From positions 1,932,501 through 1,996,500 of the forward strand of contig NZ_AP017470.1 in NCBI RefSeq assembly GCF_016592575.1: DNA of 64,000 nt. The letters run 5' to 3'. Shown in pieces: positions 24,366 through 32,435 of the stretch. Position numbers and translations under genes: made by a program. Within the stretch, counting starts at the first letter, position 1. Every line of letters begins with the position of its first letter. Below the pieces are notes generated by a model. The model had not been told where the DNA came from and did no database searches. It was given only the letters and a program-made list of their open reading frames with translations. This DNA comes from Thermotomaculum hydrothermale. Lineage in GTDB: Bacteria; Acidobacteriota; Holophagae; Thermotomaculales; Thermotomaculaceae.

Positions 24366-26243
24366 CTAATTATTGTTTTTAACAACAATAGGAGATTTTA
24401 ACGACTTGATATACTTTTTATAAGCCTTTCTGTAACTTTTGTAATCTGAAGAAGGAATTCTCATTGCTTTCCTTACATACACCGCTTTGGCAATTATCTT
24501 TCCATTAGAAAACTCAATATGGCGGTTAAAAGAAAAATATTTGTTGTCTATTGACACATCCTGAGGTAATTTAACAATTGTGTAACCATCAGGCAAAACC
24601 CATTCGGCATTTCTCTCAAAAGTCAATTTTTTACTAAAAACAATATCAACTTTTCTGGTTCTTTTTCTAAAAGGGTTTTTATATTTACTTGTCATCGGGA
24701 AAGGAATTATCAGAATCCCATCTGTTGTTTTTATTCCGTAATCAATTGCACTTACCCAGTAGGTGGTTTCAACGGTATCCAGTCCGTTTTTCACCTCTTC
24801 GTCATCCAATTTAGCCCCCATAATTTGGTCCTGAATAAATTCGTTATACTTTTTAGTTTCATTATCCTCATTTATTCCATCTAAAAACCACTTCTCAGAA
24901 TAGGCTGGCAAACCTTTTTTAAATTCGGCAATTACAAAAGAGGCTGAATTGTTCTTGTTAAGCTTACACTTTGAAACAATTCTCACTTTGTTTTCCTTTT
25001 CAGAAAAAACAGGCAATTTAATCAGTTTTCCGCCATCTCCTAAAACAAGCAAACCGTAAGTACCCTGTAACGCAGAAGGGAAAAATGGCGGTTCGGTAAT
25101 TCTATCAGTAACATCAAAGATTAGATAGGGTGTACCGTCTATTGTTAAATTCTTTAAATTTGCAGTTTCATTATCAAGTTTAACTGCAACAATAACATGG
25201 TTGAATTGAATACCGGGGAAATCCGGGTAAACCTGCCCATAAATATACCCTTTAGCCAGAACAGGGTATGCATCAAACCCTAAATTCTTTAGCAGATTTA
25301 TTGCCAGAAAACTTTTATCCTTACAATCTCCATATTTTCTGTCAATAACGAAACTGCATTTTTTAGGGACAATCCTTCCGTTTCCCAGTTCTATATCAAC
25401 ATAATTGACTTTTTTAGCCACAAAATCGAGAACCTTTTTTACTTTCTCGCTTTTTGACAATTCTCCTGAAAGCTCAATAGAAGATGTGTCTGTAAGATCT
25501 AACGAAAGCCTTGCAAGTTGCCAGAATTTTTTCGCAACTTCTTCCCATGAATTTTCATCACCTGTGAAGCATGCAGCAACAACAGGATAGAGGTCAGTTT
25601 TAGGTGGCATATTTTTTCTATCTTTTATGTATTCAACATTTTGAATTTTAAAAATATCTCCATCTCTTTTTACAATTCCATTTTTGTCATTCAACACAGC
25701 AACCTTTTTTGCACCTTTAACCTCTATTTCACTTTCCAGAATATCTCCGTCCTCTCCGAAGCTTAAAAAATAGTCCTGAAATAAATCCTTCTTTTTAAGC
25801 TCAAATTCAAGAATTATCACATCCCCCTTTTCAAGAGAATCAAAGGTAACAACAAGCTTTCGGCTATCATCGACAAAATTCTCACTTAATGCCAGGTCTG
25901 TCATATCCTTTATTTTATAACGCTCTCTAACCATTCCTGTGCCATCAAGCCTGTAAACAACTGCCTTCACAACTGTGTCACTGGCATTATAAGGAATTGC
26001 AACAGTTGAATAATCAACAGTGCCTTTAATGTTTTCGATTTTTACCATTTTTTTCAAACTGTATAGAACAAAATCACCATCCTTTTCCAATTTTGTTTTT
26101 TCGTAAAGAAACCTGACAGGGGCACCGCTATCAGTTTGCCCCTTTATATATTTTACAAAGTAAGGCTTAGCCCAATCAGGCATACTCCTTGCCAAAACAG
26201 ATATTGAAGCAAACAAACAGAAAATTATTAGAAGTTTTTTCAT
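24366..26243 (-). CDS. DUF3857/transglutaminase-like secreted protein
   Basis: Periplasmic protein of 625 residues with a signal peptide (about 1-18, ISVLARS). DUF3857 spans about 55-220. The transglutaminase-like core follows with an intact Cys-His-Asp triad: Cys307 in YGDCKDKSF, His349 in FNHVIVAV, Asp377 in IFDVTD. A C-terminal beta domain (DUF3858-like) ends the protein. Its substrate is unknown; such proteins usually act on peptides or proteins in the envelope. ATGA overlap with the upstream gene at 26240-26243 couples their translation. Confidence 0.8.
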   Translation of the reverse strand: MKKLLIIFCLFASISVLARSMPDWAKPYFVKYIKGQTDSGAPVRFLYEKTKLEKDGDFVLYSLKKMVKIENIKGTVDYSTVAIPYNASDTVVKAVVYRLDGTGMVRERYKIKDMTDLALSENFVDDSRKLVVTFDSLEKGDVIILEFELKKKDLFQDYFLSFGEDGDILESEIEVKGAKKVAVLNDKNGIVKRDGDIFKIQNVEYIKDRKNMPPKTDLYPVVAACFTGDENSWEEVAKKFWQLARLSLDLTDTSSIELSGELSKSEKVKKVLDFVAKKVNYVDIELGNGRIVPKKCSFVIDRKYGDCKDKSFLAINLLKNLGFDAYPVLAKGYIYGQVYPDFPGIQFNHVIVAVKLDNETANLKNLTIDGTPYLIFDVTDRITEPPFFPSALQGTYGLLVLGDGGKLIKLPVFSEKENKVRIVSKCKLNKNNSASFVIAEFKKGLPAYSEKWFLDGINEDNETKKYNEFIQDQIMGAKLDDEEVKNGLDTVETTYWVSAIDYGIKTTDGILIIPFPMTSKYKNPFRKRTRKVDIVFSKKLTFERNAEWVLPDGYTIVKLPQDVSIDNKYFSFNRHIEFSNGKIIAKAVYVRKAMRIPSSDYKSYRKAYKKYIKSLKSPIVVKNNN

Positions 26244-28195
26244 TCTATCTCCCTTAAAACAACCTTGGGATTTGACGCTGCCAACAATTCGTCAAATAGC
26301 GTTTTAAACTGCCAGACAGCTGTTTTGGGATAAACACTATATTTATTCTGCTGGAAAACTTTTACTTTAAATGTTTTAGAATCAAGTTTTGAGTATTCTG
26401 TTTTGTAAGAAAACCCGAGACGGCTTACAGTTTTTGCTTCCGGAAGGGTATTTATCTCAATATCTTCAGGGAGATGATAGGTAATTTCACATTTTTGTTG
26501 CTCAGGATATTTAAAAATAATCGGCGAATACCTTTTGTCAACGGCAAATGGATTTTCATCATACCTTGGAAACAATAAAGGCTTAAATATCAGGTTATCA
26601 CCTAATTCCTCAAACTCATAGGGGTAGGAAAAAGAGTATTCAACAATTAGAGGTTTATTATAAACCTTTAGATTTTTTAATTTAAAATCAATTAACTTAG
26701 CATCGTCACCAAATTGCTCTTGAATTGTTTGCTCAAAAATTTCTCTTATTTGCTTATCATTTAAAAACAATGCATAACTTTTCAAATTGTAACTTTCATA
26801 GAAATTCAAAGTTTCAGTTGCTTTCACTGTCATCTTTTCATCCCCTAATGTAACATCCATAACACTCTCACTTACCGCTTTATCTGCTGGCATATCTTTT
26901 ATTTTTTCAAAAGAAGCTCCGTTTTCACTAATAAAATAGATTTCAGTATTTCTGGCACCGTAAGGGATATACCCAAAAGGCAGCATCCCTTTGCCAGGAG
27001 CAAGGTAATAGCTTTTGCCTCCAACCTCAACCTTTAACAACCATTCTTCAAACTGACTTAATGTTCTCATTGTTCTCAAAAATTTCCCACTATCCCAGGG
27101 GACATATAGCCCAATACTTATCTTTGCGTCAGGAATTGCATTTTTTATAAAACAAAGGGTTAATAGATCAATTTGCAGTTCTGTAAGGTAAGGCAAGTTT
27201 ACAATCTTTTTCACCTTTATATCCGCCTTTGTAACCTTCTTTAAGTATTTTTTTGTTAAATTCTCTCTCTCAGATTTGCTTAACATATAAATAGACTTGT
27301 AATGAGTTACAACATAATCATATATATCCTTTAAAATCTGCTCATTGGTTTTTCCCTGTACCCCTATTTCATTTTTCAATATCTTCTTTATTGTCCTATT
27401 TGCTTTTAAAAATTTCCTGCCCTGGTAATCGAAAAAGTTAGTTGCTGTTTCCTGCCAATAATAACCGGGGTTAAGCATGTAAGAGGTGTAATAAAAAATA
27501 ATCTGCTCCCTCAATGAAGAATATGGGTAAGAATAATCTTCTTTGGGAAGCCCTGGAATATCGGTAAACACAATATTAACAATCTTTTTATCCTTCTGTT
27601 TATCTTCTGTAATCTTAGGACGCTGGTGCAAATTATCTCCAGTATATCCCCAGGTCATATACGAAGGGGCAATAAACTTCAATTCACATCTTTTAGTATA
27701 AACCTCACCCTGAGAATAAAATCTGTTTATTTCCCTTATGTAATCTTTAATTTTGGAAAAAGAATACTCAACTACAGAGCCTTCAACAAGAGAAGGGAAA
27801 GCAAAACTAATCTCTACTACTTTTTCTCCCCATTTCTTTGCAACATCTTTTTTTACAATATCAGCATCCTTTAATTTATAAATCTTTCCATCGGGAGACC
27901 AAACTATTGCTTTTAAGTCCTCTATCTTTTCCTTTTTAGGGTTGTAATAAATCTTTACATTTTTAAGGTCGTCAATCCCTTTTTTGGTAAAAACTTTAAA
28001 TTTCACATAGTACTCTTCTTTAGATTCTTTTTTTGTATAAGTATCATCTACCACAACCTTCCTTAAAATTACTATTGCATCTTTTCCACCCTTAAAAGGC
28101 TCAGGTTTTAAATTTTTGTCAGCATCGGTAATTTCCGCAACACTCTGAAATGCAAATAAAAAAAGAAAGAAAACAAAAAAAATTCCCTTTTTCAT
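26240..28195 (-). CDS. DUF3857 secreted protein, transglutaminase core apparently inactive
   Basis: 651-residue paralogue of the next gene with signal peptide (about 1-19, FQSVAE). It has the same DUF3857-then-transglutaminase layout: VKFKVFTKKGIDDLKNV at the N-terminal part, then EQILKDIYDYVVTHYKSIYM opening the core. The expected GDCKD catalytic segment reads NLPYLTELQIDLLTL and no matching His/Asp positions are evident, so the enzymatic triad seems lost. It likely serves as partner or adaptor of the active copy. GGAGG lies six bases before the ATG. First gene of the two-gene transcript. Confidence 0.7.
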   Translation of the reverse strand: MKKGIFFVFFLFLFAFQSVAEITDADKNLKPEPFKGGKDAIVILRKVVVDDTYTKKESKEEYYVKFKVFTKKGIDDLKNVKIYYNPKKEKIEDLKAIVWSPDGKIYKLKDADIVKKDVAKKWGEKVVEISFAFPSLVEGSVVEYSFSKIKDYIREINRFYSQGEVYTKRCELKFIAPSYMTWGYTGDNLHQRPKITEDKQKDKKIVNIVFTDIPGLPKEDYSYPYSSLREQIIFYYTSYMLNPGYYWQETATNFFDYQGRKFLKANRTIKKILKNEIGVQGKTNEQILKDIYDYVVTHYKSIYMLSKSERENLTKKYLKKVTKADIKVKKIVNLPYLTELQIDLLTLCFIKNAIPDAKISIGLYVPWDSGKFLRTMRTLSQFEEWLLKVEVGGKSYYLAPGKGMLPFGYIPYGARNTEIYFISENGASFEKIKDMPADKAVSESVMDVTLGDEKMTVKATETLNFYESYNLKSYALFLNDKQIREIFEQTIQEQFGDDAKLIDFKLKNLKVYNKPLIVEYSFSYPYEFEELGDNLIFKPLLFPRYDENPFAVDKRYSPIIFKYPEQQKCEITYHLPEDIEINTLPEAKTVSRLGFSYKTEYSKLDSKTFKVKVFQQNKYSVYPKTAVWQFKTLFDELLAASNPKVVLREIE

Positions 28196-28377: not shown

Positions 28378-28484
28378 CTAATTATAATACAAAAATTTTA
28401 CCAGCATTTCGGCAATTTGTTTATCTTCTGGTTCGGTGATTTTGATGTTGAAATGCCAGTCTTTTACAGGGAATTTTGAATAGA
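28378..28484 (-). pseudogene. Displaced 3' end of an ispD gene (ghost copy)
   Basis: On the minus strand this stretch reads in frame as an IspD C-terminus without a start: PVKDWHFNIKITEPED, KQIAEMLVKF, LYYN and a TAG stop. The real IspD ends PIKDWHFNIKITEPED, KETAEMLVKL, LQTE. It lies 3.37 kb from the intact gene in the same orientation, and the SIR2-like gene ends inside it. It is best explained as the original or foreign ispD 3' end separated by insertion of the intervening genes. Confidence 0.75.
28397..28471. repeat. Direct repeat, left copy (ispD 3' end)
   Basis: 75 bases matching 31765-31839 at 69 of 75 positions, same orientation. The differences respect the IspD reading frame (several are third-position changes), so the two copies probably diverged as functional alleles. 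Together they flank the SIR2/UDG island. Confidence 0.9.
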
Positions 28485-29390
28485 TTTAATTATTTCACCG
28501 TATGAACATTCATAGCTATTATCTTTTAACTTATAGGGTTTAATTGTTACCCCATAAGATTTTAAAAGAGAAAGTTTTGCTTTTTCTTGTTTCGTCTTTT
28601 TCTCTGAATTTTCAATATAGTGATAAACTGTTTTGCTAATGTTCTCTTTTTTCTGTCTAAGCTTTTCTTTATAAATAGTAAGCCACCATAAATCAATCTC
28701 TGTATAATCAAAAGAAAATCCAACTATGTGTACATCACAACCAAGAAAAAGGTCAACCCATGAATATTTTTCATAATTCTTTATTTCATTTATAGAAGCT
28801 TTAGGATTTGGAGAGAAAAAAGGAGAAATTATATTTTCGCCATCTTTTCTGGGGATTCCTGTTGTTAGATAATTCCTGATTTTCTGTATATAACCAACAT
28901 AATGCTCGTGTCCAAACGTAATACTATTAGGAACATCTGCTTCTCCATGAATATGCCACACAAACTTTTCCCCACATTTTCTTCTTCTAAACATACTGTA
29001 TTTTGTTTCTCTAAAAACATTTGCAGTTCTCATTTTTTCATTACTTTTAATGTTCTCATTTTTAGAATTTTCAATATTATAGTCATAATTTGTTGTTAAT
29101 ATGTGAGTTGCTCCTATATTGCAGAATTTCTCATGAAATTCATTAGGTTTTAAATTTTTAACCAAATTAGCAATTGTTCTCTTCAACTCTATTTCTTTAT
29201 TATTCTGTGATTTCATTGCCCTTATAGCAATTTCTTCAAAAAGCAAAGTAAAAGGTTTTTCTTTTTTATTCTTTATTACTTTTTGTAAGTTAATTTTCTT
29301 TATTAAATCGTCCAGCAAATTCTCCCAGGAATAGTTTGTTTTTAACCTATTGATACCATTACCCAATAGCAATACTTTATCTGTACTCAT
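28464..29390 (-). CDS. SIR2-like domain protein, putative defence NADase
   Basis: 308 residues, cytoplasmic. The SIR2_2-type Rossmann core is visible: VLLLGNGINRL at 6-16, LTTNYDYNIE with Asn101 and Asp103, HIHGE with His148, and DVHIVGFSFDYTEID near 225-240. Asn and His are the positions needed for NAD+ hydrolysis in ThsA-like effectors, so NADase activity is plausible. SIR2-domain proteins of this kind are frequent in antiphage systems (Thoeris, DSR and others), but no ThsB-type TIR partner or Argonaute is here. GGGGGAG precedes the ATG. Very A+T-rich and Lys/Asn/Ile-rich relative to neighbours. Its last codons lie in the ispD repeat, so its 3' end was formed at the junction or reaches into it. 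Confidence 0.72.
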   Translation of the reverse strand: MSTDKVLLLGNGINRLKTNYSWENLLDDLIKKINLQKVIKNKKEKPFTLLFEEIAIRAMKSQNNKEIELKRTIANLVKNLKPNEFHEKFCNIGATHILTTNYDYNIENSKNENIKSNEKMRTANVFRETKYSMFRRRKCGEKFVWHIHGEADVPNSITFGHEHYVGYIQKIRNYLTTGIPRKDGENIISPFFSPNPKASINEIKNYEKYSWVDLFLGCDVHIVGFSFDYTEIDLWWLTIYKEKLRQKKENISKTVYHYIENSEKKTKQEKAKLSLLKSYGVTIKPYKLKDNSYECSYGEIIKSIQNSL

Positions 29391-29618: not shown

Positions 29619-30242
29619 TTAGATATTAGTATCATATAATTTTAACATTCCTTTAATAAAATCTTTTTTGCCACCATAGGAAGGATGACGAATGTAAATT
29701 ATTTCTTGAAAAGGGAATAATTGGCTTAATACTGCTTCACCAACCCTTCCAATAGCTGCAATCTTTTGAGGTTTAAAGATTTCATAAACCATTTTTAAGT
29801 ATTTTAGCCCCTCTTCAATTTCCTTTTCCCTTGGCTTTCTGTTACTTTCATCAACCCCTTTTTCATGTGGATGAAATGGAAAAGCATTCCATAAAATAGG
29901 TGCTGGTTTGTTGTATTCAATCAAAAAACTCCAGAGTATTGTTGCTGTGTTTTCTGAAACACTTTCTGATTCTTCATGGATTAGGTTAATTTTATCTCTT
30001 AATTTTTTGAATATTTCGTGTTGAGAATATCTTATTATAGTTTCACTTGTAAATGGAATTCCTGTCAACCGACATCCCCTGTATCCAGGAGCCTCACCAA
30101 CCAGGAGAATGCGCGAATTATTTTCTAAAAGATATTCAAAATATAACCTTAAATTATTAAGCATATATTCATTTTGATATGGATTAAATACTTCATTAGA
30201 TGATTTTTTATTTAACAACATTTCTAACAATTCATTTAACAC
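29619..30242 (-). CDS. Uracil-DNA-glycosylase-superfamily protein
   Basis: Predicted DNA glycosylase of 207 residues. Motif A ILLVGEAPGYRGCRLTGIPF (46-64) and the late RHPSYGG (184-190; His185) mark the UDG fold. Between them, ILWNAFPFHPH is characteristic of a widespread family annotated as uracil-DNA glycosylase. It lacks the N-terminal Fe-S cysteines of family 4/5 enzymes. It starts with GTG and overlaps the upstream Cys-rich gene by seven bases, so they are co-translated and probably act together. UDG-fold enzymes can remove modified bases from phage DNA (Brig1 is the described case); a repair role is the alternative. Confidence 0.75.
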   Translation of the reverse strand: MLNELLEMLLNKKSSNEVFNPYQNEYMLNNLRLYFEYLLENNSRILLVGEAPGYRGCRLTGIPFTSETIIRYSQHEIFKKLRDKINLIHEESESVSENTATILWSFLIEYNKPAPILWNAFPFHPHEKGVDESNRKPREKEIEEGLKYLKMVYEIFKPQKIAAIGRVGEAVLSQLFPFQEIIYIRHPSYGGKKDFIKGMLKLYDTNI

Positions 30243-30910
30243 CCTCTACTGCCTCCATAAAGATATTCAAGCTGCTTAATCCTAAAACCAGTTGATTTCT
30301 TCCCCCAGAAACAGTTTTGTTTTACCGGGCACTCATTACATATTTTATTTATCCTGCATCTCCCGGATTTAGTGGTAAGCATTTGCATAATTTTTTGCGT
30401 TTCTTTTTGATATTTTTTACTAATATTTTCATGTGAGTTTATTTTAGATTTTAAATTGTTAAGAATTCTATCCATATCATTTTTTATACTGGAATCACCC
30501 CAGCTTACAGGGACACCTCTTGCTTTATAATCTATATCAATGCACTTGTCTTTCGGCAAAAGGACTGATTCTGATGCAGAGAATCCTATTCTGGGATATT
30601 GAAAAGTATTTCCAACTTTAAAGTAACCTATAATTTTGTTTTTACTATCACCTGAAATATTTGTGTGCCGAGTATAAAAAATCACATACTTTTTGTATTT
30701 TGTAGGTTTGGAATTTTTAAGAAAATTTCTAACTTCGCGACAATGGCACCCATCATCGTAAGATAATGTTTCAAATTTAGGGTATTCGTAATGGCCAGTA
30801 TTTGTTGGATTACACATAAAGAAATCCCGGTGCATTACTTCCTTTGAGAATAAACAACAACCATTCGGCATATCAGGGAGTGAATTATAGTAAAACAAAA
30901 TCCAAATCAT
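30236..30910 (-). CDS. Cysteine-rich protein with endonuclease III-like Fe-S loop
   Basis: 224 residues, function not recognised with confidence. Near the C-terminus Cys185-x5-Cys191-x2-Cys194-x5-Cys200 (CRINKICNECPVKQNC) closely matches the [4Fe-4S] loop of endonuclease III/MutY (C-x6-C-x2-C-x5-C). The N-terminal half has five more Cys (18, 19, 33, 55, 57). The order FETLSYDDG, then YVIFYTRHTNIS, then IIGYFKVG resembles Nmad-type nucleotide-modification-associated domains; that is a weak similarity from memory. It directly precedes and overlaps the glycosylase gene. Possible roles are recognition of modified bases, or a base-modification enzyme. No HhH glycosylase core is evident. Confidence 0.5.
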   Translation of the reverse strand: MIWILFYYNSLPDMPNGCCLFSKEVMHRDFFMCNPTNTGHYEYPKFETLSYDDGCHCREVRNFLKNSKPTKYKKYVIFYTRHTNISGDSKNKIIGYFKVGNTFQYPRIGFSASESVLLPKDKCIDIDYKARGVPVSWGDSSIKNDMDRILNNLKSKINSHENISKKYQKETQKIMQMLTTKSGRCRINKICNECPVKQNCFWGKKSTGFRIKQLEYLYGGSRGC

Positions 30911-31050: not shown

Positions 31051-31509
31051 TCATTGCTTTGACTCTTGAATAGCTGCAATCTGTTCCTGGGCTCTCTTTC
31101 TAAATTCAAGCGGTGCTGCTATTTTATGAAAAGGCTCTTTTGTCCCCCCGGAACCAGTTATAATTATGGTTCCAAAATTTAATATCCTCCCCCAAATCCC
31201 TTGATTAACACTTATTGCTTCCACTTTAGTTAAAAGTATTTCAAGGGAATGTCTTCGAATAAACCCTACCTTTACAATAATTCTTTTGTTTGTCACAGCA
31301 AACTCCGAAGTGGAATATGTTATAAAAGAAAAAAGCCCTTGAAAAATAGCAAGCAGTATAAAAAACCAGCCAAACGGTGCTAACTTATTCATAAAAAAAA
31401 TAATGGCTATAAGCAAAAATAGCACTGACCAGATAAAAATAATCCAATGCAATTTTGCCTGATATACAAGTTTCTCTCCTGCCAAAAGATTTTTTTCAAT
31501 ATAACTCAT
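31051..31509 (-). CDS. bPH2 (DUF304) small membrane protein
   Basis: 152 residues with two membrane helices (about 23-43 and 47-66) followed by a bacterial PH-like domain: YSTSEFAVTNKRIIVKVGFIRRHSLEILLTKVEAISVNQ is the family signature. Its role is unknown; members are envelope proteins of the YdbS/YdbT kind. AGGAGGG lies six bases before the ATG. It is inside the segment bounded by the ispD repeats, but 140 bases upstream of the Cys-rich gene, so it may be an unrelated passenger. Confidence 0.75.
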   Translation of the reverse strand: MSYIEKNLLAGEKLVYQAKLHWIIFIWSVLFLLIAIIFFMNKLAPFGWFFILLAIFQGLFSFITYSTSEFAVTNKRIIVKVGFIRRHSLEILLTKVEAISVNQGIWGRILNFGTIIITGSGGTKEPFHKIAAPLEFRKRAQEQIAAIQESKQ

Positions 31510-31745: not shown

Positions 31746-32435
31746 TTATTCAGTCTGTAATAACTTTACCAGCATTTCGGCAGTTTCTTTGTCTTCAGGT
31801 TCGGTGATTTTGATGTTGAAGTGCCAGTCTTTTATAGGGTAGGGGTTATAGCCGAATTCGGTTAGCATTGTGGATTCATCTGTGTAAAAGATATTTGATT
31901 TGTCAAAACAGTCTTTCAATATCCCAAGCCTTGCACCCTGCGGGGTTGTTACAGTTACAAGGTCTTTTCTTATTAGTGTTTCATAAAATCCGTCATCATT
32001 TAGCCTTCTTACCGTCCCGCTTATGGGGATAAAGGGCACGGCACAACCTGTTTCAGCAGTTTTTTCAATTATTTTTTTTACAACTTCCAAATTCAAAAAA
32101 GGCCTTACTCCGTCGTGAACAATTACAACCTTTGATTTGTCTTCTTCTTTTTCGTAGATAAAGTCAATGGCATTTTTAACAGAATGGAATCTCTCATTTC
32201 CCCCTTTAACCAGATAAACAGGAAAAGAAAAATAATTGGTTAAGTATTCGCATTCTTTTTTAAAATCACCTGGATATGTTAAGACACAGTACTGAGGTTT
32301 TATTTTAGAGAAAAAGCCTAATGTTAACTCAATAAGCCTTTTGTCCCCTATTTTTTCAAACTGCTTGGGATATGGCTTGCAAAACCTTCTCCCTATTCCC
32401 CCAGCCGTGACAATTAAAATGTAATTTCCTTCCAT
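31746..32435 (-). CDS. ispD: 2-C-methyl-D-erythritol 4-phosphate cytidylyltransferase
   Basis: Third step of the MEP isoprenoid pathway: CTP plus MEP gives CDP-ME. The nucleotidyltransferase start reads ILIVTAGGIGRRFCKPYPKQF (usual consensus AAGxGxRMG), with VVIVHDGVRPF for metal and substrate binding, and TTPQGARLGILKD. The C-terminal DWHFNIKITEPEDKETAEMLV is the substrate/dimer segment. The 229 residues are full length. SD GGAG lies five bases before the ATG. A diverged copy of its last 75 bases lies at 28397-28471. No ispF is adjacent, although the two often occur together. Confidence 0.92.
   Translation of the reverse strand: MEGNYILIVTAGGIGRRFCKPYPKQFEKIGDKRLIELTLGFFSKIKPQYCVLTYPGDFKKECEYLTNYFSFPVYLVKGGNERFHSVKNAIDFIYEKEEDKSKVVIVHDGVRPFLNLEVVKKIIEKTAETGCAVPFIPISGTVRRLNDDGFYETLIRKDLVTVTTPQGARLGILKDCFDKSNIFYTDESTMLTEFGYNPYPIKDWHFNIKITEPEDKETAEMLVKLLQTE
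31765..31839. repeat. Direct repeat, right copy (inside ispD 3' end)
   Basis: Partner of 28397-28471 (69/75 identical, same orientation). This copy is in the intact ispD reading frame. Confidence 0.9.

What the first reader, a model, noticed from the sequence alone, without database searches (positions are those of the whole stretch)
29619..30910. Coupled UDG-fold glycosylase and Fe-S-loop/Nmad-like protein: possible modified-DNA recognition pair
Seen: the two genes overlap by seven bases; the glycosylase has GEAPG and RHPS; the partner carries C-x5-C-x2-C-x5-C at 185-200, one residue short of the EndoIII cluster loop, and five additional N-terminal Cys. Known: UDG-fold enzymes can remove modified phage bases (Brig1 acts on alpha-glucosyl-hydroxymethylcytosine). 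Inference: the pair may detect and excise hypermodified bases, with the SIR2 protein downstream as an abortive effector. The Nmad resemblance is weak.
Basis: partly seen in the sequence, partly recalled or inferred. Interest (0 to 1): 0.75.

Follow-up and report, generated by a model that had tools for sequence, protein, structure and literature searches.

The report
Paired DNA glycosylase and cysteine-rich Nmad3-like protein
Two overlapping genes, one for a DNA-base-removing enzyme and one for a rare cysteine-rich protein distantly related to a domain linked to modified DNA bases, travel together between a bacterium and two archaea, and may form a small system that attacks chemically altered foreign DNA.

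Summary
In detail: two minus-strand genes (30910-30236 and 30242-29619) overlap by 7 bases, with the motifs and cysteines stated. The pair is real: the only two other copies found, in two archaeal MAGs (one a Methanophagales), keep gene order and overlap at 62-64% identity. Locally it is a recent insertion: genus-mates have ispD followed by arsC, and the insertion lies between 81-nt repeats of the ispD 3' end.

The glycosylase models very well (pLDDT 95) as a SMUG1-like UDG-superfamily fold, without Fe-S cysteines. The genome has a separate ordinary UDG, so this is not its housekeeping copy.

The partner matches no Pfam family. A profile built from PF18754 (Nmad3) members ranks its archaeal homologues first (E 3e-4 to 6e-4); profile-profile score is 40.7 against at most 23.6 in shuffles. 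So the "weak Nmad" idea is strengthened, as a divergent Nmad3-like core. The claimed EndoIII loop is not: C185 is not conserved; C-x2-C-x5-C-x23-C is. SIR2 is not part of the conserved unit.

Best reading: a Brig3-BapA-like two-component module excising modified bases from invading DNA. Substrate, defence role and metal are untested. New variant of a known kind.

The parts
30236..30910 (-). CysP: 224-aa cysteine-rich protein, divergent Nmad3-like
   Evidence: no Pfam/PADLOC/NCBIfam hit
30602..30784 (-). Nmad3-like core of CysP (residues 43-103: PKFETLSYD...VIFYTRH...IIGYFKVG)
   Evidence: profile match
30239..30340 (-). invariant C-terminal cysteines C191-x2-C194-x5-C200-x23-C224, candidate Fe-S or Zn site
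   Evidence: invariant in three homologues
29619..30242 (-). UDG-superfamily DNA glycosylase, 207 aa, GTG start, overlaps CysP by 7 bases
   Evidence: PF03167; model pLDDT 95.3; SMUG1-like
30084..30098 (-). glycosylase motif GEAPG (residues 49-53)
29886..29888 (-). N119, invariant Asn of WNAFPFHPH, in the place expected for the base-reading Asn
   Evidence: invariant in 14 sequences; role inferred
29679..29690 (-). glycosylase motif RHPS (residues 185-188)
28464..29390 (-). SIR2_2 protein, 308 aa; island neighbour, not part of the conserved pair
   Evidence: PF13289 4.4e-9; ThsA-type PADLOC hit 3.7e-10; absent from archaeal loci
31051..31509 (-). bPH_2 (bacterial PH domain) protein inside the island; relation unknown
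28391..28471 (+). left direct repeat: decayed copy of ispD 3' end
   Evidence: 81 nt, 90% identical to 31759-31839
31759..31839 (+). right direct repeat: 3' end of the intact ispD (31746-32435)
   Evidence: ispD hit twice in own genome

Best explanation
A horizontally moved, translationally coupled two-protein module that acts on DNA carrying a modified base. CysP recognises (and possibly strips or exposes) the modification through an Nmad3-like domain held by a C-terminal Cys4 metal site; the SMUG1-like glycosylase then cuts the base from the sugar, leaving abasic sites that block replication of the invading DNA. It works like the Brig3-BapA operon. Shown: conserved pair with overlap, UDG fold, retained Asn and His-Pro-Ser motif, Nmad3-like similarity, recent insertion. 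Inferred: complex formation or hand-over, metal, modified-base substrate, anti-phage role.
For: Pair conserved across domains at about 62%. UDG model pLDDT 95.3, Foldseek best hits SMUG1 1e-9. Nmad3 profile finds CysP homologues first among 1,878 ORFs and beats 150 shuffled profiles (16.8 vs 4.6 bits; hhalign 40.7 vs 23.6). The genome has another UDG shared with its genus-mates, so uracil repair is already covered. Other members of this UDG family lie beside MazG_C (L012, L014, L052), Nmad2 (L052) or HNH (L045) genes on plasmids and prophage-like contigs. Brig3 (a 5hmC glycosylase with residual uracil activity) with BapA (ASCH-like partner) is an experimentally shown operon of this logic (PMC13160076); UDG, MazG, MazG-C and NMAD domains also occur among the predicted defence systems of PMC13092281.
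Against: No substrate data. Only three copies of the pair are known, and only the bacterial one is seen next to a defence-type gene. The window CysP itself scores only E 0.11 against the Nmad3 profile and fails Pfam's own model. I know of no established biochemical function for Nmad3. The CysP structure model is unusable (pLDDT 38). Many UDGs of this family stand without CysP.
Confidence: 0.45

Rival explanations
1. An accessory repair module: the glycosylase removes uracil or another deaminated or oxidised base from the host's own DNA, and CysP is a helper (metal-bearing DNA-binding or handover factor).
For: Nearest solved folds are SMUG1, UdgX and family-4 UDGs, all repair enzymes; the candidate base-reading Asn and HPS motif are kept.
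Against: The genome already has a UDG shared by its genus-mates; the CysP gene is absent from all eight family-mates and from 296 other phylum genomes, and the pair is an insertion.
Confidence: 0.25
2. A nucleotide-pool or self-marking system: the pair protects or edits DNA of the mobile element that carries it (for example removing wrongly placed modified bases) rather than attacking invaders.
For: Related UDGs sit beside MazG_C nucleotide enzymes and, on one plasmid, near a thymidylate synthase; one Nmad3 gene sits beside a 7-cyano-7-deazaguanine synthase.
Against: No modification-making gene lies beside the pair in any of its three loci.
Confidence: 0.15
3. The three genes CysP, UDG and SIR2 are one abortive-infection system: base excision is the sensor and SIR2 depletes NAD+.
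For: SIR2 lies in the same 3.3-kb insertion; SIR2_2/ThsA-type match. Brig1 also lies near a ThsA-like gene (PMC11078745).
Against: SIR2 is absent from both archaeal loci, is 228 bp away, and has relatives on plasmids. Co-residence in a defence island is enough to explain it.
Confidence: 0.1

Closest known systems
Brig3-BapA operon (5hmC glycosylase plus glucosyl hydrolase)
   Same: Two-gene operon of a DNA glycosylase and a partner; defence against modified-base phages is the proposed function here and shown there (PMC13160076).
   Different: BapA is described as a two-barrel ASCH-like protein of at least 252 residues; CysP is 224 aa, Nmad3-like and has a Cys4 tail.
Brig1 alpha-glucosyl-hmC glycosylase
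   Same: UDG superfamily; found near a ThsA-like SIR2 gene (PMC11078745).
   Different: Acts alone; closest to a family-4 UDG by its authors' Dali result, while this one is SMUG1-like.
Nmad3 (PF18754, nucleotide modification associated domain 3)
   Same: Core PxFETxxY...FY...IIGYFxV aligns with profile support well above shuffles.
   Different: Below Pfam's cut-off; extra invariant cysteines; paired with a glycosylase.
SMUG1 / SMUG2, UdgX and family-4 UDGs
   Same: Fold and motif positions.
   Different: GEAPG instead of the SMUG Asn motif (own knowledge); no family-4 Fe-S cysteines; 13-21% identity in the Foldseek list.
Fe-S loops of EndoIII, Cas4 and AddB (from own knowledge)
   Same: C-x2-C-x5-C spacing is shared by all of them.
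   Different: The fourth cysteine here is C224 or one of the N-terminal ones, not C185; metal not shown.
UDG-MazG_C neighbourhoods and NMAD/UDG predicted systems (DefensePredictor)
   Same: Same UDG family or same domain types in predicted defence.
   Different: Different partner protein; none validated for this UDG.

Membership tests
UDG superfamily (PF03167) | Pfam model above gathering score | tested here: met
   42.1 bits against 24.3, E 1.2e-10
UDG superfamily (PF03167) | alpha/beta UDG fold | tested here: met
   pLDDT 95.3, SMUG1 probability 1.00, TM 0.65-0.72
Family-4 UDG (TIGR00758) | score above subfamily cut-off and Fe-S cysteines | tested here: not met
   34.5 bits against 125.3; only one Cys in the protein
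Brig-type antiviral glycosylase | excises a phage modified base and protects cells | not testable with these tools
   needs enzyme and plaque assays
Brig-type antiviral glycosylase | sequence homology to Brig1 or Brig3 | not tested
Nmad3 (PF18754) | Pfam model above gathering score | tested here: not met
   no hit for CysP at E up to 10 nor for its homologues at E up to 1 or 10
Nmad3 (PF18754) | remote homology to Nmad3 members | tested here: met
   top hits of 1,878 ORFs, E 3e-4 and 6e-4; hhalign 40.7 vs max 23.6 in 150 shuffles; window copy alone weak, E 0.11
Nmad2 (PF18753) | remote homology | tested here: not met
   hhalign score 23.8, probability 4, about the level of the best Nmad3 shuffle
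EndoIII-type Fe-S cluster loop | four conserved cysteines C-x6-C-x2-C-x5-C | tested here: not met
   first Cys absent in both homologues; spacing x5
4Fe-4S or Zn protein in general | bound metal | not testable with these tools
   eight invariant cysteines are only compatible with it
SIR2-coupled abortive system | SIR2 conserved with the pair | tested here: not met
   absent from both other loci
Integron gene cassette (archaeal copies) | attC sites flanking the genes | tested here: inconclusive
   attC-like elements at L022 449-535 and 1827-1914 exactly flank the pair, but shuffles give 0.8 hits per locus; no IntI above cut-off

The most novel reading that the evidence does not exclude
A new two-protein immune module, carried as a mobile two-gene cassette across archaea and bacteria, in which an Nmad3-like metalloprotein reads or strips a base modification that no known glycosylase handles and passes the base to a SMUG1-like enzyme. 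It would give the Nmad3 domain its first function.
Probability: 0.3. Interest if true: 0.8.

Novelty: new variant of a known kind. Interest (0 to 1): 0.58.

Why it matters
Base excision of modified phage DNA is a recently recognised form of immunity, with few proven cases. A second partner type for a UDG-fold enzyme, conserved between domains of life, would show that pairing a glycosylase with a modification-handling protein is a recurring design. It would also make the function of the uncharacterised Nmad3 domain directly testable, in a two-gene module small enough for a single plasmid.

Tried and rejected
CysP by direct homology: no hits in plasmids, phages, IMG/VR (three approaches) or PDB. 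CysP structure: pLDDT 38; its Foldseek list (EVE and YTH proteins among noise, best E 0.17) was not used as evidence. HTH_36 hit of an archaeal CysP (0.0015, below cut-off): weak, covers 27 residues that overlap the edge of the Nmad3-like core, rejected. Nmad2: rejected. CysP-like proteins beside other UDGs of the family: none found. Integron explanation for the window copy: no attC-like site there. Integron integrase in the archaeal genomes: the hits miss the cut-off, the same model rings in all 14 control genomes, and the G325 protein looks like a plain Xer-type recombinase. The Marinobacter neighbour looked ASCH-like by eye but had no Pfam hit, so it is not claimed. Iyer 2013 and Burroughs 2015 were not held.

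Full report
Observation. GEAPG, RHPS and the cysteine spacing C185-x5-C191-x2-C194-x5-C200 are all present.

The pair is conserved. A scan of one genome per species found one relative of the 224-aa protein (called CysP here), in a Methanophagales MAG, 62% identical over the full length. The next gene is the UDG, again overlapping. A search of 394 genomes of that archaeal phylum found one more copy, G331, with the same order and a 7-base overlap. G331 is not among the 58 genomes of the Methanophagales copy's class, so it probably belongs to another class. The window's UDG groups with these two archaeal UDGs (support 94/95), next to UDGs without CysP; the UDG of another genus of its own family (G013) is only 44% identical. 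The pair thus appears to move as a unit between domains. CysP was absent from 296 other genomes of the window's phylum, from 60 relatives, and from plasmids, phages and viral contigs.

Local origin. In genus-mates G299 and G205 ispD is followed directly by arsC. In the window bPH_2, CysP, UDG and SIR2 lie between two copies of an 81-nt stretch of the ispD 3' end, 90% identical, and two DUF3857 genes follow. G+C is lowest here, 28-29%. This looks like an insertion with a duplicated target or attachment site; no recombinase lies within it.

Archaeal setting. In the Methanophagales contig the pair sits exactly between two attC-like elements (L022 449-535 and 1827-1914), and a similar repeat follows the next gene. 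Integrons are reported in archaea as platforms for cross-domain transfer (PMC9668308), which would explain the spread. But the box patterns are weak on their own (0.8 hits per shuffled locus) and no integron integrase reached its cut-off, so this stays a suggestion.

Glycosylase. PF03167 matches at 1.2e-10. With a 14-sequence alignment the model is excellent (pLDDT 95.3, pTM 0.91), and the best solved folds are SMUG1 enzymes (E 1e-9, TM 0.65-0.72), then UdgX and family 4. N119, H186-P187 and an NRxPxxxE stretch are conserved, the Pro of the latter nearly so. Family-4 membership fails by score, and Fe-S cysteines are missing. The genome carries another UDG, present in its genus-mates. Relatives of the island UDG lie on plasmids and prophage-like contigs; several sit beside MazG_C genes, one of them with an Nmad2 gene nearby, and one beside an HNH nuclease.

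CysP. No library recognised it. Reading Nmad3 members gathered from other genomes showed the same run of motifs: P-x-F-E-T-x-x-Y, F-Y, I-I-G-Y-F-x-V. A nine-sequence Nmad3 profile put the two archaeal CysP proteins first among 1,878 ORFs (E 3e-4 and 6e-4), with the window copy at E 0.11. Against 150 column-shuffled or reversed profiles the scores were 16.8 versus at most 4.6 bits, and 40.7 versus at most 23.6 in hhalign. Nmad2 gave only background. I take CysP as a divergent Nmad3-like protein, below the formal Pfam threshold. The second half of a Halorientalis Nmad3 protein, next to a 7-cyano-7-deazaguanine synthase, also matches the CysP profile weakly.

Cysteines. Eight are invariant in three proteins: C18, C33, C55, C123, C191, C194, C200, C224. 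C185 is not. The EndoIII analogy therefore loses its first ligand; C-x2-C-x5-C with a fourth cysteine elsewhere fits Fe-S staples such as Cas4 and AddB (own knowledge) as well as zinc sites.

Mechanism. The published Brig3-BapA operon pairs a glycosylase with a partner that removes the sugar from the base, and is modelled as flipping that base out (PMC13160076). The same logic fits here: CysP handles the modification, the UDG removes the base. This is inference; the substrate could be uracil. SIR2 is best treated as a neighbour in the island.

Novelty. NMAD, MazG-C and UDG domains are already named among predicted defence systems (PMC13092281), and defence by DNA glycosylases is proven, so this is a new variant of a known kind, with an unusual cross-domain distribution and a partner that none of the libraries searched here recognises.

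Noticed in passing
window 28391-28471 and 31759-31839: 81-nt direct repeats of the ispD 3' end flank the island; genus-mates have ispD followed directly by arsC.
   Followed up: yes
L022 449-535, 1827-1914, about 2648-2731; L021 9835-9920: attC-like elements around the archaeal copies of the pair; possible integron cassette array in Methanophagales, the next gene being a PRiA4_ORF3 protein.
   Followed up: partly
L011, L012, L014, L052: The same UDG family is directly downstream of MazG/MazG_C genes (MazG_C by Pfam in L012, L014, L052; annotated pyrophosphatase in L011) on plasmids and a prophage-like contig, and forms a tree clade (100/100) with L006 and L007.
   Followed up: partly
L052 5065-5670: Nmad2 gene two genes downstream of a UDG of this family.
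   Followed up: partly
L045 2498-2782 and L046 1188-1472: HNH nuclease gene directly upstream of a UDG of this family.
   Followed up: no
C-termini of CysP, L056-L058 (Nmad2) and L067: Several Nmad-type proteins end exactly in a cysteine (GGSRGC, SNQVC, CWTTC, KCKSSC, GCGGC, SSGGC); possible functional tail.
   Followed up: no
L067 4001-5293: Halorientalis protein joins an Nmad3 domain to a second domain weakly like CysP, beside a 7-cyano-7-deazaguanine synthase and a PfkB kinase.
   Followed up: partly
window 24366-28195: Two large DUF3857/transglutaminase-like genes beyond the left repeat, also missing between ispD and arsC in genus-mates.
   Followed up: no
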